NCBI GenBank assembly: GCA_029062985.1
Contig: JAIDPA010000013.1
Span: forward strand, 1 to 37,702
Direction: 5' to 3'
DNA length: 37,702 bases
Origin: Muribaculaceae bacterium
Lineage (GTDB): Bacteria; Bacteroidota; Bacteroidia; Bacteroidales; Muribaculaceae
Below the pieces are notes generated by a model. The model saw only the letters and a program-made list of their open reading frames with translations. It made no database searches and had not been told where the DNA came from. Shown one piece after another: positions 48 to 37,584 of the stretch; the first letter of the stretch is position 1, and every line of letters starts with the position of its first letter. Position numbers and translations under genes: made by a program.

Positions 48-159
48 TAGGCTGTAGGGATTAGGTGTTAGGCAATAGGCTGTAGGCATTAGGTGTTAGG
101 CATTAGGCTGTAGGCATTAGGTGGGAGGCATTAGGCGGGAGGGGTTAGGATCGAGGTTG
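48..159 (+). repeat. Heptamer tandem array A (16 units of 7 bp)
   Basis: Sixteen consecutive 7-base units run in exact register with no indel. They are variants of TAGGCAT, TAGGCTG and TAGGTGT, drifting to GAGGNNN at the right end. A higher-order 28-base period is visible: the four-unit block TAGGCTG-TAGGCAT-TAGGTGT-TAGGCAT recurs at 48, 76 and 104 with few changes. The flanks (1-47 and 160-240) are G/T-rich and look like more decayed copies. Whatever gene lies to the left is outside the window. The same unit family recurs at six other places here. Confidence 0.9.
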
Positions 160-6163: not shown

Positions 6164-6205
6164 AAAGGACTCCGCCACACTCGCAGGAGAGTGGCGGAAT
6201 CCTTT
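6164..6205 (-). terminator. Strong hairpin terminator after the gate-domain gene
   Basis: A 15-base inverted repeat (AAAGGACTCCGCCAC / GTGGCGGAATCCTTT, one mismatch) with a 12-base loop. On the minus strand it is followed by TTTTATTTTG. It would end the porin/gate-protein transcript, 158 bases past its stop codon. The AT-rich stretch 6206-6241 between repeats and hairpin is built of AAATTGAAAATTT-like quasi-palindromes. Confidence 0.88.
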
Positions 6206-6245
6206 AAAATTGAAAATTTAAAATTGAAATTTGAAAATTATGACA

Positions 6246-6364
6246 TAGGCTCGAGGTTTGAGGTGCGGGGATTTGTCTGCGCGTGGGGAAGTTGGGGACA
6301 ACATCCCTCTCCAGTGTGCCTCCCGGCTCCTGCCTAATGCCTTGAGCCTAATGCCTACAGCCTT
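6246..6364. repeat. Heptamer array C, two opposed blocks
   Basis: Minus-strand block at 6364-6316: seven 7-base units (AAGGCTG, TAGGCAT, TAGGCTC, AAGGCAT, TAGGCAG, GAGCCGG, GAGGCAC). The first unit overlaps the TAA stop of the gene ending at 6363. A second block of about four units in the opposite orientation is at 6246-6273 (TAGGCTC, GAGGTTT, GAGGTGC, GGGGATT). Together they form an inverted pair in the 3' region of the gate-domain gene. Confidence 0.85.
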
Positions 6365-7547
6365 AAAACAGGAATGTCACCAAAACATAGAAGATATGGG
6401 CGCAGATTGCAGCGACGACTCCTCCTATTGTATGGGCAAGAATAGCTTTGGAGGTGAGTTCTCTGTAACCCAGAGAATCAAGCATGGCTGTGTGAGTGGA
6501 GAGATAGCCGCTCCAGCACATACCTATAGCCGTAAAGACAGCTATTGCATTCCCGTCAATCCATCCCTGGCTGACAAAATTAGGCACAAGACCGAGAGCA
6601 GCTCCTACAGCGCCGAGGGCAGTGATAGGGAACGCAATCAGGTGAGGATCGGAAAAACCGAAAAGAAACTCAAATACGGGTCCTATCTTCTGAGCTGCGA
6701 GAGGGAGAAATTCCACCCCTTCATAGGCACCCCCGGTGAAAGTTCCGTCGGCAGCGGGTCCGAATGTGAGAAGCATTACAAATGTGGAGATTATGAGCAC
6801 GCCGGGTATGATTGCCAATCCTATCTCGACACCCCCTTTGCCACCGTCAAGGATCGCATTGAGCACCCGGGCAAAAGTTGATTTCCCGACATTGCTATCC
6901 TCTTTTTCCTCATGATGCTCTTCGACTGCTGCATCTTCTGTCAGGAATTTTGGAAAAGCCTTCACGACAAATCTCTGCATCAGTCGGGTTGAGACTATAC
7001 AGCCGCAGAATGCGCCTAAGAAACCGATAAACGGTTCCCATGTGTAGCCCTGACCCACCATAAAGACTAAAACAAGGAGTCCCATTCCGAATGCCGTGCC
7101 GAAATTGGTGAGTGAGATAAGCTGAAATTTTTTGAAATAGCTTCCGAAACGCTTGTCATGGGCAAGGGTAATTATGGCAGGGTTATCGCTCAGGAAAGTC
7201 ATTACGGCTCCCAGAGAGGCAACTCCGGGAAGATTGAACAAGGGTTTCATGAGCGGGCGCAGTAGCTTCTCGAGAAGGCTGACCACGCCAAATTCAACGA
7301 AAATCTGTCCGAGCGCACCTGTCAGCACACATATAGCCATAAGATAGAGCACCGTGTTCAGCAGCAGATCATGGGCAGTCTTCATCATTGTATTGAGGAG
7401 ATTTGCCATTCCCATCACTCTACCCAGACCGTAGAAAATGGCAAACACTATAGCCAGACAGATGACGCCGGAATATTTCTTCAGAAGAGAAGCTTTCGAC
7501 GAGGAAGTTTGAGCAGTTGGCATTTCTTGTAAAGATTGAGATTCCAT
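6363..7547 (-). CDS. Nucleoside-recognition (gate) domain inner-membrane protein, CD0519/CD1768-like
   Basis: 394 aa polytopic membrane protein. A hydrophilic N-terminus of about 25 residues is followed by hydrophobic segments around 28-48, 60-85, 105-125 and 150-170, then a charged cytoplasmic-looking loop rich in Glu/His (about 205-220), then further helices. GVASLGAVMTFLSDNPAIITLAHD and GFSDPHLIAFPITALGAVGAALG fit the gate domain of the nucleoside-recognition superfamily (PF07670), shared with SpmA/SpmB and nucleoside transporters. The substrate is unknown. It lies 61 bases downstream of a porin on the same strand, so it probably shares its mRNA and may form an outer/inner membrane uptake pair. 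Its stop TAA opens a heptamer array, followed by a strong terminator. Confidence 0.75.
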   Translation of the reverse strand: MESQSLQEMPTAQTSSSKASLLKKYSGVICLAIVFAIFYGLGRVMGMANLLNTMMKTAHDLLLNTVLYLMAICVLTGALGQIFVEFGVVSLLEKLLRPLMKPLFNLPGVASLGAVMTFLSDNPAIITLAHDKRFGSYFKKFQLISLTNFGTAFGMGLLVLVFMVGQGYTWEPFIGFLGAFCGCIVSTRLMQRFVVKAFPKFLTEDAAVEEHHEEKEDSNVGKSTFARVLNAILDGGKGGVEIGLAIIPGVLIISTFVMLLTFGPAADGTFTGGAYEGVEFLPLAAQKIGPVFEFLFGFSDPHLIAFPITALGAVGAALGLVPNFVSQGWIDGNAIAVFTAIGMCWSGYLSTHTAMLDSLGYRELTSKAILAHTIGGVVAAICAHIFYVLVTFLF

Positions 7548-8843: not shown

Positions 8844-8892
8844 GAGGCTTTAGGCATTAGGCTTTAGGCATTAGGCTGGAGGCTTTAGGCTT
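8844..8892 (+). repeat. Heptamer array B between divergent genes
   Basis: Seven 7-base units in register: GAGGCTT, TAGGCAT, TAGGCTT, TAGGCAT, TAGGCTG, GAGGCTT, TAGGCTT. It lies 46 bases upstream of the DUF1573 gene at 8939, in the divergent region shared with the porin promoter. Unlike most other copies it is not at a gene 3' end. The rest of 8665-8938 holds the porin promoter, the small palindrome TAAACGGTTTA at 8811-8821, and AT-rich DNA. Confidence 0.9.
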
Positions 8893-8938
8893 TCACTTAA
8901 TTAAATTAGATATTTATACGAAAAATATAATTTGCGAT

Positions 8939-9355
8939 ATGAAAAGCAATCAAAGATTTAAAGGCATCATGCAGCTTACGGGCATTTTGTTTATGCTCGC
9001 CGTTGCGTTGCCGATGTTTGCAGGAGGCAATAAGCCTCATGTAAAGGTGGAGAATCCTACCCATGATTTCGGAATGGTGAAAGAAGATGGAGGACCGATT
9101 TCATGTGAATTTACTCTCGTCAACGAAGGGGAAGGAAATCTTGTCGTTATAGATGCCAAGGCTGATTGCGGCTGCACACGCCCCTCTTTCCCAAAGGCGC
9201 CCATCGCTCCGGGGAAAAGCGGAAAAGTAAAGGTCACGTATAATCCTTTAGGACGTCCCGGCAGTTTCGATAAGGTGGTCACGCTGCGCACTAATGGTTC
9301 GCCTTCCAAGGTTCGTCTCAAAATCAGAGGGACTGTCACTCCGAAAGGTAAATAA
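8939..9355 (+). CDS. DUF1573 domain secreted protein (single domain)
   Basis: 138 aa. The signal peptide is MQLTGILFMLAVALPMFAGG, preceded by a charged start. One DUF1573 domain follows, an Ig-like ASPM/SPD-2/Hydin-type beta-sandwich. Hallmarks are NPTHDFGMVKEDGGPISCEFTLVN, the Cys motif DCGCTRPSFP and the closing VTYNPLGRPGSFDKVVTL. The domain is very common in Bacteroidetes periplasmic or cell-surface proteins; its molecular role is not established. It is followed 27 bases later by a larger paralogue, probably in the same transcript. Confidence 0.88.
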   Translation: MKSNQRFKGIMQLTGILFMLAVALPMFAGGNKPHVKVENPTHDFGMVKEDGGPISCEFTLVNEGEGNLVVIDAKADCGCTRPSFPKAPIAPGKSGKVKVTYNPLGRPGSFDKVVTLRTNGSPSKVRLKIRGTVTPKGK

Positions 9356-13614: not shown

Positions 13615-13683
13615 ATCAACTTTCGCAAGCTCAAGTTGATGGTTATTAGGTTAACAACCTTAAGTTGCGCCTGCGAAACTTAA
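13615..13683 (+). promoter_or_regulatory. Structured leader between the acyl-CoA ligase and prfB
   Basis: Two local hairpins can form. H1 is ATCAACTT (13615-13622) with AAGTTGAT (13633-13640). H2 is TTAAGTTGCG (13660-13669) with CGAAACTTAA (13674-13683), 10 positions with one mismatch. An alternative long-range pairing joins AACTTTCGCA (13618-13627) to TGCGAAACTT (13672-13681), 9 of 10, and would break both. No U-run follows, so a plain terminator is less likely. No TAnnTTTG promoter is seen before prfB at 13704. A regulatory leader or RNA switch is a guess; the complementarity itself is visible. Confidence 0.5.
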
Positions 13684-13703
13684 ATTATCAAATTATTTCA
13701 TTA

Positions 13704-14822
13704 ATGATAACACAGGAACAACTCAAGGAGGCAGCCGAAAGAACGGAAGCCCTGAAGAAATATCTTGACATAGACAATAAAAAGATAGAAGTGGAGGAGG
13801 AAGAACTCCGCACTCATGTGGCAGATTTCTGGGAGGATAGAGAAAAAGCAGAAGCTCAGATGCGTAAGATAAAGGGATTGCATTTCTGGATTGATTCTTA
13901 CACAGAGCTGGAGAAGCAGCTTGAGGAACTGCAGCTTGCCTTTGACTTCGTGAAGGAGGAACTTGTCACCGAGGAGGAGGTTGATGCTCAGTATGCCAAG
14001 GTCATAGAGAATGTGGAGAAGCTCGAACTCCGTAATATGCTTCGTCGTGAGGAGGATAAGTTGGGAGTAGTGCTGAAGATTAATTCCGGAGCCGGAGGCA
14101 CGGAGAGTCAGGACTGGGCTCAGATGCTCATGCGTCTGTATCTCCGTTATGCAGAAAAGCACGGTTATAAGACCTCCATTGCACAGCTTCTCGAAGGGGA
14201 TGACGCCGGAATCAAATCCGTAACAATCAATATTGAGGGAGATTATGCCTACGGTTTCCTTAAAAGTGAGAACGGAGTTCACCGTCTTGTGCGCGTAAGT
14301 CCATATAATGCACAGGGAAAACGTATGACGTCTTTTGCCTCGGTTTTCGTGACTCCTTTGGTCGATGACACCATTGAAATCAATGTTGAGACCGCAAGAG
14401 TCTCTTGGGATACGTTCCGTTCGGGAGGCGCAGGAGGTCAGAACGTGAACAAGGTAGAATCCGGTGTCCGTCTGCGCTATCAGTATAAGGATCCCTATAC
14501 AGGAGAAGAGGAGGAGATATTGATAGAAAACACAGAGACCCGCGACCAGCCTAAAAATAAAGAAAACGCCATGCGCCAGCTGAAATCAATTCTATATGAG
14601 AAGGAGCTTCAGCACCGTATGGAGGAGCAGGCAAAAATTGAGGCAGGAAAGAAAAAGATAGAGTGGGGCAGCCAGATACGCAGTTATGTCTTTGATGACC
14701 GCCGCGTGAAGGACCACCGCACCAATTACCAGACCTCTGACGTCAATGGCGTTATGGATGGTGGTATCGATGCCTTCATAAAGGCTTATCTCATGGAATT
14801 TGCCGAGACAGCGGAAGGGTGA
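13704..14822 (+). CDS. prfB: Peptide chain release factor 2 (RF2), no programmed frameshift
   Basis: 372 aa. Recognises UGA and UAA and triggers peptide release. Catalytic GGQ at 244-246 in RSGGAGGQNVNKVES. The stop-recognition tripeptide region reads SPY (199-201) where the Escherichia coli protein has SPF. I start at ATG 13704 (MITQEQL); the 13 upstream in-frame residues are leader sequence. The place where many bacteria carry the +1 autoregulatory frameshift (TATCTTTGAC) reads TATCTTGAC at 13761-13769, so the gene is continuous. It is followed directly by an octamer repeat and a hairpin shared with convergent fbp. Confidence 0.97.
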   Translation: MITQEQLKEAAERTEALKKYLDIDNKKIEVEEEELRTHVADFWEDREKAEAQMRKIKGLHFWIDSYTELEKQLEELQLAFDFVKEELVTEEEVDAQYAKVIENVEKLELRNMLRREEDKLGVVLKINSGAGGTESQDWAQMLMRLYLRYAEKHGYKTSIAQLLEGDDAGIKSVTINIEGDYAYGFLKSENGVHRLVRVSPYNAQGKRMTSFASVFVTPLVDDTIEINVETARVSWDTFRSGGAGGQNVNKVESGVRLRYQYKDPYTGEEEEILIENTETRDQPKNKENAMRQLKSILYEKELQHRMEEQAKIEAGKKKIEWGSQIRSYVFDDRRVKDHRTNYQTSDVNGVMDGGIDAFIKAYLMEFAETAEG

Positions 14823-14854
14823 GATTGGGGGATTAGGTGATTGGGTGATTGGGG
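14823..14854 (+). repeat. Octamer tandem array H (4 units of 8 bp)
   Basis: Four 8-base units in register, GATTGGGG, GATTAGGT, GATTGGGT and GATTGGGG, begin directly after the TGA stop of prfB. The unit differs from the 7- and 9-base families but occupies the same kind of position at a gene 3' end. Array A decays into similar GGGATTGGG-type sequence at its right side. Confidence 0.8.
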
Positions 14855-14867
14855 GAGCATTATCAGG

Positions 14868-18340: not shown

Positions 18341-18385
18341 TGAGAGCATTGAGAGCACTGAGAGCATTGAGAGCACAGAGAGCAC
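18341..18385 (+). repeat. Nonamer tandem array D9 (5 units of 9 bp)
   Basis: TGAGAGCAT and TGAGAGCAC alternate for four units, then AGAGAGCAC, then a degenerate TGAGTCTCAG. Read on the minus strand it follows heptamer array D7, the same 7-mer then 9-mer order seen after nnr at 37394-37548. Confidence 0.88.
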
Positions 18386-18400
18386 TGAGTCTCAGACCTC

Positions 18401-18435
18401 GAGCCTTGAGCCTCGCGCCTAATGCCTACAGCCTA
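18401..18435 (-). repeat. Heptamer array D7 at the stop codon of the Wzi gene
   Basis: On the minus strand the units are TAGGCTG, TAGGCAT, TAGGCGC, GAGGCTC, AAGGCTC. The TAG of the first unit is the stop codon of the Wzi gene, whose last codon (CGT) completes a partial preceding unit. Confidence 0.88.
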
Positions 18436-19920
18436 ACGCCTCTTCAAGGAAAAATCTCCTGTTTTGCCGATTGAAAGGAGCACTCCGAAGCTCTTCCCGA
18501 GAAGCTTACCGGTGTCGCCGGCAACGCCGACCTTTCCAAACCAACCCCGGAATTTATTAGGAGTCCATGTGACCTCCAAGAGCCCGTTGAAATTATTAAG
18601 CACATCCGGAGCCTGATAATCATAAGAACCCCAGCTACGTGTGAAAGACAGCAACAGACGATAATTCAGTTCATCGGTGGGATTCCCTTCCAGTCCGAAA
18701 TGATGCCCGATAATACGGTTGTTGAGAAAGTGAAGCATCCCGTTTGTATTGAATACAGGAGAAATTACGAGAGGATTGCCGATGCCCATGCCCCAATGCT
18801 GCCAGCAGTTGTAGAGATAATGGTTGTAGTAATCGTCTCTTCCGCTGACTTGTTCAGGCACTTCAGGTGTGGCATTCCACAAGACTCCTCCTGTCTGATC
18901 TTTGGTGTGAAGAAACTCGTAGACGAAATTTGAAACGAATCTGTTTTCCGGCAATTGCACTTCAATTCCGTAGAGACCATCCTTCCATCCATATTCGAAG
19001 GTCATCTGCGACTCATCCTCAAAGAAATGTTCGTAATAAGCGCGAATACTCCAGTCAGCTTTTGGTCGCCAGGCTAAAGCAATGTTGTATGCTCCCATCA
19101 TGTTTCCCTCCACGCTCCGGTTATCCTCCCCGGCGAAAGTTGAATGTGAGTATTTGGGAAAGAAAGCCTTGAGCCATTCCTTGATGCCATGGCTCATGTG
19201 ATACCACTCACCATCAACGAAAGCCTTTCCGCCGAATTGAGTAGCCATTTCAATGCCAAGTTCTCCCCGGAGAGGAAACTTGTCAGTATTTCCTCCTCTC
19301 AGCCATAGCCCCTTGCTATGATAGAGCACATTCTCGGTGCGGTTTCCTTCAATGCCGGCTTTTGATTTCTGCCATTTCGAGTCGGTAAACATTCCGTAAG
19401 CAAAATATCCTTTTACCGAAAACCAACCCTTACAGCCCCAAACATCTGCATAATCAAAAATGCCGAGACGCAATTGCGGCACGGGCAGGGCATTTCCGGA
19501 ATAAAGCAAATCTCCGGAGGAAAGCCTGTGATTGGTGAATTCACCCCATATTTCCTTACTCCCCAATAACCCCTGAAGAGAACGGTATTTTATTTCGCCG
19601 TAGAGCTGATGGATATAGAAAGGGGACTGAGCGTTCCATGCTCCGACAAGATCAACTCCGGCTCCCCACGTGAACCTGTTCTCCTCATTGAGGTCTTTAA
19701 ACAAAGCGCCTCTGACGAAACCGTTATTTTTTTCCGGGGAACCAAGTCCCTGCAGATTATTGACGAGCCAGAAAGGGGTATGGCTTCCCCCCGAAAAAGT
19801 AGCCCTGACTTCCCCTTCATAACGAAGAGAATCCGGCTGTTCAGCCCCGGCAACTATTGGCAGAAGAAATGAGGCAATACCTAATATTGCTCCTGATTTT
19901 ATTTTTATAAATCTATTCAA
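18433..19920 (-). CDS. wzi: Capsule assembly protein, Wzi family (outer membrane)
   Basis: 495 aa. Signal peptide IKSGAILGIASFLLPIVAGAEQ, then a beta-barrel with the Wzi family (PF14052) signatures GSHTPFWLVNNLQGLGS, FYIHQLYGEIKYR, GGNTDKFPLRGELGIEMATQFGG and SGRDDYYNHYLYNCWQHWGMGIGNP. Wzi proteins hold capsular or exopolysaccharide at the outer membrane. It is divergent from the initiating transferase at 20052 and marks the left edge of the polysaccharide locus. Its stop TAG lies inside a heptamer array. A -7-like TACCTTTG is at 19956-19949. Confidence 0.9.
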   Translation of the reverse strand: MNRFIKIKSGAILGIASFLLPIVAGAEQPDSLRYEGEVRATFSGGSHTPFWLVNNLQGLGSPEKNNGFVRGALFKDLNEENRFTWGAGVDLVGAWNAQSPFYIHQLYGEIKYRSLQGLLGSKEIWGEFTNHRLSSGDLLYSGNALPVPQLRLGIFDYADVWGCKGWFSVKGYFAYGMFTDSKWQKSKAGIEGNRTENVLYHSKGLWLRGGNTDKFPLRGELGIEMATQFGGKAFVDGEWYHMSHGIKEWLKAFFPKYSHSTFAGEDNRSVEGNMMGAYNIALAWRPKADWSIRAYYEHFFEDESQMTFEYGWKDGLYGIEVQLPENRFVSNFVYEFLHTKDQTGGVLWNATPEVPEQVSGRDDYYNHYLYNCWQHWGMGIGNPLVISPVFNTNGMLHFLNNRIIGHHFGLEGNPTDELNYRLLLSFTRSWGSYDYQAPDVLNNFNGLLEVTWTPNKFRGWFGKVGVAGDTGKLLGKSFGVLLSIGKTGDFSLKRR

Positions 19921-29742: not shown

Positions 29743-29784
29743 TAGGCTCAAGGCACGAGGCTCAAGCCTAACGCCTAATGCCTA
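29743..29784. repeat. Heptamer array E, hairpin-forming, next to the EpsG stop
   Basis: On the minus strand, three units (TAGGCAT, TAGGCGT, TAGGCTT) are followed by three units in the opposite sense (GAGCCTC, GTGCCTT, GAGCCTA). The two halves can fold on themselves: AGGC with GCCT outside and AGGCT with AGCCT inside a TTGA-type loop. The array begins 2 bases after the TAA stop of the EpsG gene (29789-29787). It could serve as its terminator structure. Confidence 0.82.
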
Positions 29785-29786
29785 AC

Positions 29787-30881
29787 TTACTTCCAGATGC
29801 GGCGGAAGAGTGCTTCGCGTTCATGAATTGTGACCGGTTCGAAGATTGAAACGTAAGGATACCAAGTCGGGAAGAGTGAATAATAATAGATTGATTGCGT
29901 AAGGCATATCAAGCCGATGACAGTCAGTCGGAGAGGAACCTTCACATGGTAATTAACCAGGTAGTTTGCCAATGCCGCAGTGACAAAGAGTGTGGTATAA
30001 TTAGTAAACCGCTGAAAAATCACAGGTATTGCAAACGCTCCGCAACAGAAAATTATCTGAAGGAGGATTAAATGCCTGAACGGTGTCCGCAGGCGTGAAA
30101 AGTGATAAAGAATAAGAGTGAGCATGGCAGGAATTCCTGTCTTTATCATCTCGGATATTCGCCAGTTCATATTGACATTATCCACATCTTTCACGTAGGT
30201 GGAAATCTTTTCCGAGACCACGCCCAATGAAAGCATCTCGTTGAATTTTTCCACTAAAGGCGTGACTGCAAGTATGCCGACGCAGAAAATATAGAAGAAA
30301 ATATTAGGACGAAGATATTTTACGAAAGGAAGAAACCATATCAGGATAGCTGAATAATGAAAGGAAATTGAAAGCAAGGAGAAGAGATAATAACGAATCC
30401 ACCTCTTTTCCCGCATATTTCTGTAATTTACTAAAAATATGCCGATTGCCGCACTCTCCCGCATAATCTCCGTCGAGAAATAGAGCCACTGAAGAATCAG
30501 AAACAGAAATATCCCCATGAATACGTTCCGGCAATTCCTGTAGAGGAAGATAAATATGCAGCTATTTGTTATGGCTGACATTATTAATTGCACGGGCCAG
30601 AATTCCTTTGTAAAGAGGCGGCATAGGGAACAGACAAGGAGATAGCCGGGCTCGTGATGCTCCCTGAATATTTTTGTGGTGAAGAAATTATCGAGAGGAA
30701 CCGTATTCTTATAGGAGCTCATGTAACCCAATGTATCCATACCGACCCGGTAGCGAAGACCCATAAGCATGACAATATAGAGCAGGATAATCATTACGAA
30801 CATCCTGCGTGAAGCCGGTGAAAAACGTTGGTTCAGTCCCACGCCGACCACTGCCAATATGATTCCTGCAAGATACTCCAT
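29787..30881 (-). CDS. EpsG-family membrane protein (second polymerase candidate)
   Basis: 364 aa, around ten hydrophobic segments, with MGLRYRVGMDTLGYMSSYKN, EPGYLLVCSLCRLF and ISFHYSAILIWFLPFVKYL. The RxxxGxDxxxY motif and the SxHxSA segment are characteristic of the EpsG family (PF14897), thought to polymerise or modify exopolysaccharide. Its ATG follows the flippase stop codon directly with no gap. It is last in the minus-strand unit from 34463. With the Wzy-like protein at 25330 the locus has two polymerase-type genes. Confidence 0.85.
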   Translation of the reverse strand: MEYLAGIILAVVGVGLNQRFSPASRRMFVMIILLYIVMLMGLRYRVGMDTLGYMSSYKNTVPLDNFFTTKIFREHHEPGYLLVCSLCRLFTKEFWPVQLIMSAITNSCIFIFLYRNCRNVFMGIFLFLILQWLYFSTEIMRESAAIGIFLVNYRNMREKRWIRYYLFSLLSISFHYSAILIWFLPFVKYLRPNIFFYIFCVGILAVTPLVEKFNEMLSLGVVSEKISTYVKDVDNVNMNWRISEMIKTGIPAMLTLILYHFSRLRTPFRHLILLQIIFCCGAFAIPVIFQRFTNYTTLFVTAALANYLVNYHVKVPLRLTVIGLICLTQSIYYYSLFPTWYPYVSIFEPVTIHEREALFRRIWK

Positions 30882-35713: not shown

Positions 35714-35755
35714 GCGTCTCGCGCCTTGAGCCTTGAGCCTTGAGCCTCATGCCTA
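35714..35755 (-). repeat. Heptamer array F between fba and nnr
   Basis: Six units on the minus strand: TAGGCAT, GAGGCTC, AAGGCTC, AAGGCTC, AAGGCGC, GAGACGC. It lies in the divergent region, upstream of both genes. 35545-35876 also contains the fba promoter and the nnr promoter. Confidence 0.85.
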
Positions 35756-35778: not shown

Positions 35779-35810
35779 TTTGCAAATCACGCCAATCTGA
35801 GTTAAATTTG
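35779..35810 (+). promoter_or_regulatory. nnr promoter
   Basis: -33 TTTG at 35779-35782, 20-base spacer, -7 TAAATTTG at 35803-35810. It overlaps an alternative upstream ATG at 35808, so that start cannot be used. Confidence 0.85.
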
Positions 35811-35876
35811 CATTCCTTTTCATCGTTCTTAGTTCGCCTGTGTGAAAATGGCTCCTATGATATATTTCTTCGTGTT

Positions 35877-37403
35877 ATGAAAATTTTTACGTCAAACGTT
35901 ATTCCGGAAATAGACAGCGCTACCTGCGAGGCTCAGAAAATTGACTCCATCGAGCTTATGGAGAGGGCAGCGGCGGCTCTAAGTGTCGAGATTATTTCAC
36001 GCTTCCTCCCTTCGCAGCGTATTGTGGTGATTGCCGGTCCGGGCAATAATGGCGGCGACGCTCTTGCCCTTGCAAGGATTCTGTTTGAGCAAGGCTATAA
36101 GAAAGTTGAGGTCTTTCTTTTCAATGTAGTCGGCAAGCTCAGCCATGATTGCGACGAGGAGAGAAAGAAGCTCATCACAATGGAGGGTATAGACTTTACT
36201 GAGGTCAAACACGATTTCCAGCCTCCTTACCTTGGTGAGAGTGATGTCGTGGTCGACGGTCTGTTCGGCTCAGGGCTAAGCCGACCCTTGCAGGGCGGTT
36301 TTGTAATGCTCGCAAGGCTAATCAACGAATCGAAAGCTTACGTCATATCAATTGATGTCCCTTCAGGTCTTTCCGGCGAATGGAATGAGAATGCCTTGAA
36401 GAGAGACATGATTCATGCCAATCTCACGCTTGCGTTTCAGTTTCCGCGACTTGCGTTTTTCTTCAGCGAAAATTCCGATATAATAGGGGAGTGGCAGCTG
36501 CTTGACATTGATCTTGACGAAAAGAAAATTAAGGATATTCCTTCAAATTATCTTTATGTCGAGGCTAAGAGCGTGCGTCCTTTCCTGAAGCCGAGAAATA
36601 AGTTTACCGGTAAGCGCGACTTCGGCTCTGCCCTTATTATAGCAGGAAGCACCGGCATGATGGGCGCGGCTGTAATGGCAGCCAGAGGGTGCCTGCGTTC
36701 CGGTGCCGGACTTGTAACCGTCCACAGTGCCCGCGGAGGATTGCAGATTCTTCAGACTGCTGTCCCGGAAGCTATGTTTGAGCCTGACCGTCAGGAGCAT
36801 TTCATTAAGGATATGACTGTCCATCATAGCCATCAGGCTATTGCCGTCGGTCCGGGTATCGGCACAAATGACGGCACAATCGATGCTCTCGAGTCTTTCC
36901 TTAAGAACTGTAAGGCGCCACTCGTGCTTGATGCAGATGCATTGAATTGTATTTCCCGACGCCCGCAACTCCTTTCCCTGATTCCCCCGGGCACAGTCAT
37001 CACTCCCCATATCGGCGAATTTGACCGTCTCTTCGGCGAGCATTTCAGTTCGGAGGCACGCCTGAAGAAAGCTATAGATATGGCTAAATACTATAATATA
37101 GTGATTGTGCTCAAAGGGCATTACACGACAACTATTGCTCCTACCGGTAAGGTATTCTTTAACTCAACGGGAAATCCCGGGATGGCTACTGCCGGCTCCG
37201 GCGATGTTCTGACGGGTGTGATTACAGCTTTTCTTGCCCAGGGACTACGTCCGTCAATGGCAGCTACCATCGGAGTATATGTGCATGGGCTTGCCGGAGA
37301 TTTCGCACTTGAAGAGAACGGTGAATATGGTATGATAGCTAATGATATCGCCCGTAATTGCGGCAAGGCAATCAAAGCGATAATCACCAGAGAGAGGCTT
37401 TAG
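35877..37403 (+). CDS. nnr: Bifunctional NAD(P)H-hydrate epimerase / ADP-dependent NAD(P)H-hydrate dehydratase
   Basis: 508 aa. Repairs hydrated NADH/NADPH. The N-terminal YjeF_N epimerase domain (about 1-215) has AGPGNNGGDALALAR (53-67), VDGLFGSGLSRPL and ISIDVPSGLSGE. The C-terminal ribokinase-like dehydratase domain (about 230-505) has ALIIAGSTGMMGAA, AVGPGIGTNDG, VLDADALNCI, VITPHIGEFDRLFG and GSGDVLTG. I start at ATG 35877, because the earlier in-frame ATG at 35808 is inside the promoter. Its last two codons (AGG CTT) and stop (TAG) are themselves part of a heptamer repeat array. Confidence 0.96.
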   Translation: MKIFTSNVIPEIDSATCEAQKIDSIELMERAAAALSVEIISRFLPSQRIVVIAGPGNNGGDALALARILFEQGYKKVEVFLFNVVGKLSHDCDEERKKLITMEGIDFTEVKHDFQPPYLGESDVVVDGLFGSGLSRPLQGGFVMLARLINESKAYVISIDVPSGLSGEWNENALKRDMIHANLTLAFQFPRLAFFFSENSDIIGEWQLLDIDLDEKKIKDIPSNYLYVEAKSVRPFLKPRNKFTGKRDFGSALIIAGSTGMMGAAVMAARGCLRSGAGLVTVHSARGGLQILQTAVPEAMFEPDRQEHFIKDMTVHHSHQAIAVGPGIGTNDGTIDALESFLKNCKAPLVLDADALNCISRRPQLLSLIPPGTVITPHIGEFDRLFGEHFSSEARLKKAIDMAKYYNIVIVLKGHYTTTIAPTGKVFFNSTGNPGMATAGSGDVLTGVITAFLAQGLRPSMAATIGVYVHGLAGDFALEENGEYGMIANDIARNCGKAIKAIITRERL

Positions 37404-37470
37404 GCGCGAGGCTCAAGGCTTTAGGCTCGAGGCTTTAGGCTTTAGGCTCAAGGCTTTAGGCTTTAGGCTC
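37394..37470 (+). repeat. Heptamer array G7 running out of the nnr stop codon
   Basis: Eleven 7-base units in register: GAGGCTT, TAGGCGC, GAGGCTC, AAGGCTT, TAGGCTC, GAGGCTT, TAGGCTT, TAGGCTC, AAGGCTT, TAGGCTT, TAGGCTC. The first two units encode the end of Nnr (RL, stop). Confidence 0.92.
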
Positions 37471-37476
37471 AAATAA

Positions 37477-37548
37477 CTCTCAGTTCTCAGAGTTCTCACA
37501 GTTCTCTGAATTCTCAGAGCTCTCGCAGTTCTCGCTGTTCTCTGAGAG
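37477..37548 (+). repeat. Nonamer tandem array G9 (8 units of 9 bp)
   Basis: Eight 9-base units in register: CTCTCAGTT, CTCAGAGTT, CTCACAGTT, CTCTGAATT, CTCAGAGCT, CTCGCAGTT, CTCGCTGTT, CTCTGAGAG. It starts 6 bases after array G7. CTCAGAG and CTCTGAG pieces allow internal pairing. Confidence 0.9.
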
Positions 37549-37584
37549 CTTTAACCCAAAAATATAAATTAAAAATTAAAAATA

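What the first reader, a model, noticed from the sequence alone, without database searches (positions are those of the whole stretch)
37394..37470. Heptamer arrays that start at, or supply, stop codons
Seven loci carry tandem 7-base units of one family (48-159, 6246-6364, 8844-8892, 18401-18435, 29743-29784, 35714-35755, 37394-37470). At nnr and the Wzi gene the TAG stop is part of a unit; at 6363 and 29787 the array begins at or within 2 bases of the TAA. Because 7 is not a multiple of 3, TAG falls in all three frames within three units. The complementary strand gives TAA at unit junctions (CTA|A). The array is thus a stop signal in six frames. It may be a translational or transcriptional punctuation element, a Rho-related 3' end, or a selfish repeat that lands where extra sequence is harmless.
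Basis: partly seen in the sequence, partly recalled or inferred. Interest (0 to 1): 0.75.

Follow-up and report, generated by a model that had tools for sequence, protein, structure and literature searches.

The report
Polar heptamer arrays at gene ends
Short tandem DNA repeats of seven letters often sit right behind the ends of genes in this gut bacterium, nearly always with their G-rich strand on the coding side, and arrays of this kind do the same in many unrelated bacteria, whether or not their units hold stop codons.

Summary
The arrays are real: 28 three-unit matches in the window against 0 in shuffles, 453 four-unit matches in the genome against 0 in the reversed control. The placement claim holds: in four sampled genomes of the genus 27 of 51 flanking gene 3' ends lie within 10 nt of an array (random placement: mean 2.7, maximum 9), starts 2 of 41. 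It recurs in unrelated bacteria: near-stop arrays are mainly sense in 38 of 44 assemblies, anti in 4, tied in 2. The 'six-frame stop signal' fails: the focal array has stops in 2 of 3 sense frames, stop-bearing units are no commoner near stops, and stop-free CGGATT[AGT] arrays mostly sit the same way, 10 to 3. Rho is not required (Chamaesiphon 9 to 0). Arrays do not replace terminators and are not shared with relatives. Viral contigs dissent in part. The kind is known (Rehm et al. 2015, Xanthomonas and Nostoc G4 heptamers); new: neither GGG nor stops needed, wide spread. Mechanism unproven; transcription-coupled expansion favoured.

The parts
37395..37471 (+). focal AGGCNNN array, 11 cores, sense, overlaps the TAG stop of nnr (35808-37403)
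   Evidence: no AGGC array seen in the 300 nt downstream of nnr in 27 other genomes of the genus (read by eye)
18400..18441 (-). AGGCNNN array, 6 cores, sense, overlaps the TAG stop of the gene 18433-19920 (-)
   Evidence: absent in the G110 orthologous region
6315..6363 (-). AGGCNNN array, 6 exact cores, sense, shares the last A of the TAA stop of the gene 6363-7547 (-); a degenerate opposite-strand partner lies at about 6246-6264
   Evidence: absent in the G110 orthologous region
29744..29783 (.). inverted pair of AGGC arrays (29744-29764 + and 29763-29783 -); the minus arm follows the TAA stop of the EpsG-family gene 29787-30881 (-) directly
   Evidence: absent downstream of the G116 orthologue
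8845..8893 (+). AGGCNNN array, 7 cores, in a divergent region upstream of the DUF1573 gene 8939-9355 (+)
   Evidence: absent in the G110 orthologous region
35720..35754 (-). AGGCNNN array, 5 cores, divergent region between the aldolase gene (34546, -) and nnr (35808, +)
   Evidence: absent upstream of the G116 orthologue
70..139 (+). AGGCNNN array, 8 exact cores, at the contig edge, with degenerate units on both sides (48-159)
14823..14856 (+). octamer array (GATTGGGT/GATTAGGT type), same layout: G-rich on the sense strand, begins directly behind the TGA stop (14820-14822) of a release-factor gene
   Evidence: absent in G110
37477..37542 (+). nonamer array (CTCACAGTT type), C-rich on the sense strand, just beyond the focal array
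18341..18389 (-). nonamer array (CTCTCAGTG type on the gene's strand), C-rich on the sense strand, just beyond the 18400-18441 array

Best explanation
These are short intergenic satellites (heptamer simple-sequence arrays) that accumulate at gene 3' ends with a fixed polarity: the G-rich strand is the coding strand and the array begins within about 0-20 nt of the last coding base (in one case, of a tRNA gene's end). Shown here: position, strand rule, occurrence with different unit sequences, with stop-free units and without Rho, and absence of the arrays at the same places in relatives. The stop codon is read as a boundary and not as the function: an array can sit on the last codons only if it brings an in-frame stop, which would explain why 16 of 34 near-stop arrays overlap the stop codon. 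Inferred: the arrays arise and expand where RNA behind the gene is no longer covered by ribosomes; G-rich nontemplate DNA favours R-loops there, and the exposed G-rich strand slips at replication, so mainly G-sense arrays grow next to gene ends. C-rich (antisense) arrays farther out are tolerated, partly because they are the G-sense arrays of a convergent neighbour, and together with the first arm they can fold into long hairpins.
For: Stop proximity: 27 of 51 gene 3' ends within 10 nt, null mean 2.7 and maximum 9 of 400 placements. Strand: 32 to 2 near stops, 3 to 21 at 16-300 nt; other 7-9-mer families 16 to 6 and 4 to 29 (stretches of nine genomes). Wide set: 130 arrays in 116 stretches, none called coding, 58 sense to 7 anti near stops, 20 to 55 farther; within the same intergenic region 47 sense-at-stop against 16.2 expected, 6 anti against 16.0 (93 arrays); one vote per assembly 38 to 4 with 2 ties, and 31 to 1 for arrays wholly past the stop. 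No Rho needed. No stops needed. One array starts 10 nt behind a tRNA-Val gene, sense. Gene ends without arrays show GC skew between -0.12 and +0.04. Arrays absent at 6 of 6 comparable loci in relatives; in G005 the nnr gene ends in a different heptamer array (TTAAGGG) starting at its own TAA.
Against: No RNA, R-loop or mutation data were available; the R-loop step is inference. Antisense arrays between tandem genes (17 of 37 tandem arrays in the genus set, 22 of 50 in the wide set) are not explained by it. The G strand's 5' border tends to be the nearer one also where that border is a start codon (43 of 63), which hints at a rule that does not depend on transcription. In the viral-contig set stop-free AGGC units near stops were 1 sense to 6 anti, and 58 arrays were called coding. 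In one search three near-stop arrays were anti, two of them against reading frames that themselves contain arrays. A tendency of the 3' edge to be frayed is weak, and the internal gradient was an artefact.
Confidence: 0.45

Rival explanations
1. DNA-level polarity: arrays sit next to the gene border on the 5' side of the G strand whatever the gene's direction, because growth or deletion at the array is polar and stops at selected sequence (the stop codon on one side, leader or promoter on the other).
For: The 5' border is nearer for 131 of 161 arrays, start borders included (43 of 63; a few stretches counted twice), and in 51 against 10 assemblies. Degenerate cores are commoner beyond the 3' edge (units 2-4: 53 of 189 against 28 of 184). 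Rehm et al. 2015 (section 13 read) state the rule 'irrespective of the ORFs orientation'.
Against: Tight abutment is seen at stops only (median distance 1 and 5.5 nt at stops of the genus and wide sets against about 66 nt at starts). No internal age gradient with symmetric counting.
Confidence: 0.25
2. Functional transcript 3'-end element: the sense array and the downstream C-rich arm form a long hairpin around or before the terminator that stabilises mRNA or aids termination, comparable to REP/BIME elements (recalled).
For: Folding of stop-to-next-gene sequence: mean z -4.7, 21 of 32 with z < -2 (60 shuffles each; both genes of a convergent pair counted); most two-armed elements reach -6 to -14. 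All 14 close opposite-strand pairs are convergent.
Against: Many one-armed elements fold little or no better than shuffles; arms of a pair share unit order hardly more than unrelated arms (13.6 against 12.2); terminator-like hairpins are equally frequent without arrays (10 of 27 against 167 of 441); arrays are not shared between related species.
Confidence: 0.2
3. Translational punctuation: arrays are selected because they carry stop codons in many frames.
For: 16 of 34 near-stop arrays overlap the stop codon. In the viral-contig set stop-bearing units sit sense at stops 21 to 2, stop-free ones 1 to 6.
Against: The sense strand has stops in all three frames in 14 of 33 near-stop arrays; the antisense strand would do better (18 of 33). 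Stop-bearing units are not enriched near stops (0.51 against 0.58). The CGGATTA family puts its stop-free strand sense at stops. By direct reading the Xanthomonas unit GGGAATC has no stop on either strand and is reported with the same placement.
Confidence: 0.05
4. Rho-related signal or avoidance of Rho loading at C-rich sense arrays behind stops.
For: C-rich sense arrays are depleted right after stops (6 against 16.0 expected) and would resemble rut sites (recalled).
Against: Same rule without Rho: Chamaesiphon 9 sense to 0 anti; no PF07497 match in G127 and G128, while the 7 other genomes of that call match (drafts of untold completeness, but cyanobacteria are known to lack Rho, recalled).
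Confidence: 0.05

Closest known systems
GGGAATC / GGGGA(C/T)T G-rich heptamer repeats of Xanthomonas and Nostoc (Rehm et al. 2015, PMC4692102; abstract, first of three parts of Results, sections 13 and 14 and Discussion read)
   Different: Here the unit has only GG doublets, so the GGG tracts behind their G4 reading are missing; the unit often carries stops; 8- and 9-mers of other sequence follow the same strand rule; found in many phyla; 0 of 6 loci shared with relatives (their Xcc/Xac: 83% shared).
TAACTGA direct repeats of Beggiatoaceae, Cyanobacteria and Bacteroidetes (MacGregor 2015, PMC4679880; abstract and section 10 read)
   Same: Intergenic heptamer direct repeats, patchy across phyla, including some Bacteroidetes.
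   Different: TAACTGA sits mainly just upstream of start codons in BOGUAY; here arrays sit at gene 3' ends. Different unit.
Cyanobacterial STRR heptanucleotide repeats (recalled; not read)
   Same: Heptanucleotide intergenic tandem repeats.
   Different: Placement relative to stops and strand not known to me; not tested.
Prokaryotic satellites (Subirana and Messeguer 2019, PMC6749651; abstract read) and tandem repeats of Borg elements (PMC9879509; search listing only)
   Same: Tandem repeats in prokaryotes; those of Borgs are called rapidly evolving.
   Different: Not described, in what I saw, as heptamer families with a strand rule at gene ends.

Membership tests
G-rich intergenic heptamer repeats (Rehm et al. 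kind) | tandem heptamer units, heterogeneous within an array | tested here: met
G-rich intergenic heptamer repeats (Rehm et al. kind) | over-represented in non-coding DNA | tested here: met
   3 loci inside genes, 46 intergenic with both flanks, 12 at contig edges; 0 of 130 called coding in the wide set; but 58 called coding in viral contigs
G-rich intergenic heptamer repeats (Rehm et al. kind) | near stop on coding strand, nearer to the 5' neighbour | tested here: met
G-rich intergenic heptamer repeats (Rehm et al. kind) | convergent inverted pairs | tested here: met
   14 of 14 close opposite-strand pairs are convergent
G-quadruplex-forming repeats | four runs of at least three G | tested here: not met
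   core AGGC has GG only; a weak two-tier G4 cannot be excluded here
intrinsic terminators | GC-rich hairpin followed by a T run, made by the array itself | tested here: not met
   terminator-like hairpins in 10 of 27 array intergenic regions against 167 of 441 without arrays; in array regions their apex lies 47-179 nt from the stop, control median 47
TAACTGA repeats | unit TAACTGA, mainly just upstream of start codons | tested here: not met
   unit AGGCNNN; starts within 10 nt 2 of 41 against 2.9 expected
Rho-dependent termination sites | function requires Rho | tested here: not met
   placement rule holds in genome G127, which has no Rho match
mobile or selfish element | transposition, target duplication or encoded enzyme | not tested
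   no element-encoded gene or target duplication was looked for

The most novel reading that the evidence does not exclude
Gene 3' ends across bacteria obey a general strand law for tandem repeats: any G-rich heptamer-class array, whatever its sequence, is born and kept with its G strand on the coding side directly behind the gene. This would be the footprint of a so far unrecognised transcription-coupled repeat-expansion process in bacteria (R-loops in ribosome-free RNA), a counterpart of R-loop-linked repeat expansion in eukaryotes.
Probability: 0.3. Interest if true: 0.75.

Novelty: new variant of a known kind. Interest (0 to 1): 0.5.

Why it matters
The strand and position rule was published for two G4-type heptamers and left without an explanation. 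Showing that it needs neither GGG tracts, nor stop codons, nor Rho, and that it recurs in unrelated bacteria, removes the easy explanations and turns 'why heptamers behind genes' into a testable question about transcription, translation and repeat expansion.

Tried and rejected
Six-frame stop signal: rejected as function (speaks partly for it). Rho: rejected as general cause. Array as terminator: rejected. Copying of one arm into the other by template switching (quasipalindrome correction): arms share unit order hardly more than controls, 13.6 against 12.2, with 2 of 14 pairs at or beyond the 5% tail. Background composition: gene ends without arrays show no G excess. Chimeric genome bin as cause of clustering by contig: not settled; arrays sit in 14 of 61 stretches of G000 (8 stretches are wholly masked as N), none below 41% GC. 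Internal age gradient vanished once the last unit's spacer was left out. TTAGGC as a specially favoured unit: arrays of six NTT cores in 0 of 295 other genomes of the phylum, while the reversed control occurs in 2, so other units are at least as common. Simple longest-ORF calling (wide sets) makes errors in GC-rich DNA: six of 20 arrays were flagged coding, several of them through ORFs made of the array itself, and at L501 the called antisense ORF hides what reads as the end of a sense gene directly before the array.

Full report
What is there. The window (contig 35 of a 2.97 Mb draft genome in 323 contigs) carries seven loci of AGGCNNN heptamers. Three-unit matches number 28 against 0 in 100 shuffles; genome-wide, four-unit matches number 453 against 0 for the reversed pattern. 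A lag scan of 21 stretches (259 kb: the window, contigs 1-10 and ten stretches chosen because one search listed arrays there) finds 35 period-7 segments, 6 at period 8, 5 at 9 and 4 at 12, besides multiples of these, and none in one shuffle of each stretch. Spacers are not random: TCA, ATT, TTT, TCG, GTT, TGT and GCG make up 205 of 251. Of 111 genomes of the genus, 7 have five-unit arrays: G000 313 matches, G110 206, G060 48, G116 33, G021 10, G084 4, G063 1. Other families occur beside them: octamers (GATTGGGT), nonamers (CTCACAGTT, TTATAAGAT), CAATTTT and AATTAGG heptamers.

Relation to genes. With a simple codon-score gene caller on stretches of four genomes (G000 61 stretches; G110 24; G116 6 and G060 3, most of these nine chosen for their arrays), 46 array loci lie between two genes, 3 inside genes and 12 at contig edges. 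Within 10 nt of the array lie 27 of 51 flanking stop codons (400 random placements: mean 2.7, maximum 9) but only 2 of 41 start codons (mean 2.9). The distances to stops are bimodal, up to 13 or from 85 nt. Strand (stretches of nine genomes): of the near-stop arrays (15 nt or less) 32 have AGGC on the coding strand and 2 do not; at 16-300 nt it is 3 to 21 (Fisher 1e-10). Other 7-9-mer families give 16 to 6 near and 4 to 29 far by G excess, while gene ends without arrays have GC skew between -0.12 and +0.04. In the window, four of seven loci are stop-anchored and all four are sense. Among 34 near-stop junctions, leaving out one at a contig edge, 16 arrays overlap the stop codon.

Absence in relatives. 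Downstream of nnr, none of 27 orthologous loci in other genomes of the genus shows an AGGC array in the 300 nt read; in G110 and G116 the protein ends at the same residue. In G005 the same gene ends in another heptamer array (TTAAGGG) starting at its own stop codon. At the five other comparable window loci the relative examined, G110 or G116, has no array; the locus at the contig edge was not compared.

Outside the genus. Of 130 arrays none was called coding; near stops (20 nt or less) 58 sense and 7 anti, farther 20 and 55. Placed at random inside the same intergenic regions, the 93 arrays with both flanks would give 16.2 sense-at-stop; 47 are seen, and 6 anti against 16.0. One vote per assembly, two assemblies of the genus left out: 38 sense, 4 anti, 2 ties among 44 with near-stop arrays; arrays lying wholly past the stop 31 to 1; the border at the 5' side of the G strand is the nearer one in 51 assemblies against 10.

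What it is not. Not a stop signal: only 14 of 33 near-stop arrays have stops in all three sense frames and the opposite strand would have more (18); stop-bearing units are not enriched near stops (0.51 against 0.58); the CGGATT[AGT] family of two other genomes of the phylum, whose G strand has no stop in any frame in 20 of 20 arrays, sits G-sense at stops 10 to 3 (six of the 20 arrays were flagged coding and left out), although in the 17 arrays of G267 the other strand has stops in all three frames. One of these arrays starts 10 nt behind a tRNA-Val gene, sense, where nothing is translated. Not Rho: Chamaesiphon polymorphus has no Rho RNA-binding domain match and shows 9 sense to 0 anti near stops, 1 to 10 far (22 arrays in 20 stretches taken around listed matches). 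Not the terminator: 10 of 27 against 167 of 441. Two-armed elements do fold strongly (mean z -4.7 over all 32 elements folded), and all 14 close opposite-strand pairs are convergent, but their arms are in general not copies of each other.

Against my reading. Start-border arrays also tend to lie nearer the 5' border (43 of 63), which a purely transcriptional cause does not predict. Antisense arrays between tandem genes remain unexplained.

Known or new. Rehm et al. 2015 (PMC4692102) report for GGGAATC and GGGGA(C/T)T repeats that intergenic arrays lie nearer the 5' neighbouring ORF irrespective of ORF orientation, within 50 bp of the stop on the coding strand, with many convergent pairs in Xanthomonas, and leave the function open. 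The present arrays meet these features but lack GGG. The one search of the held library that named Muribaculaceae, with 'tandem repeats' and 'intergenic', found no paper. I therefore file the arrays as a new variant of that kind, and propose, as inference, transcription-coupled expansion of G-rich repeats in ribosome-free RNA behind genes.

Noticed in passing
window 14823-14856: An octamer array (GATTGGGT type) begins directly behind the TGA stop of a peptide-chain release factor gene (13665-14822); absent in relative G110.
   Followed up: partly
window 18341-18389 and 37477-37542: Nonamer arrays (CTCTCAGT/CTCACAGTT type) lie just beyond two of the heptamer arrays; similar nonamers occur in G110 (L089 5888-5927, L097 8303-8364).
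   Followed up: partly
window 6203-6239 and 37559-37583; L044 478-514: AAAATTG/CAATTTT heptamers; arrays of other families within 15 nt before start codons are C-rich on the sense strand 18 to 0.
   Followed up: partly
L043 13144-13285: A tandem array that changes from a nonamer (CCTTAAAGA, CCCTAAATA) to an octamer (CCCTAAAT) without a break.
   Followed up: no
G000 contigs 1-60: Arrays are concentrated in 14 of 61 stretches (8 of the 61 wholly masked); stretches below 41% GC have none. Accessory DNA or bin heterogeneity could be the cause.
   Followed up: no
L166 11601-11874: G103 carries a different octamer repeat system (ACAAAAGG type) with a longer higher-order repeat.
   Followed up: no
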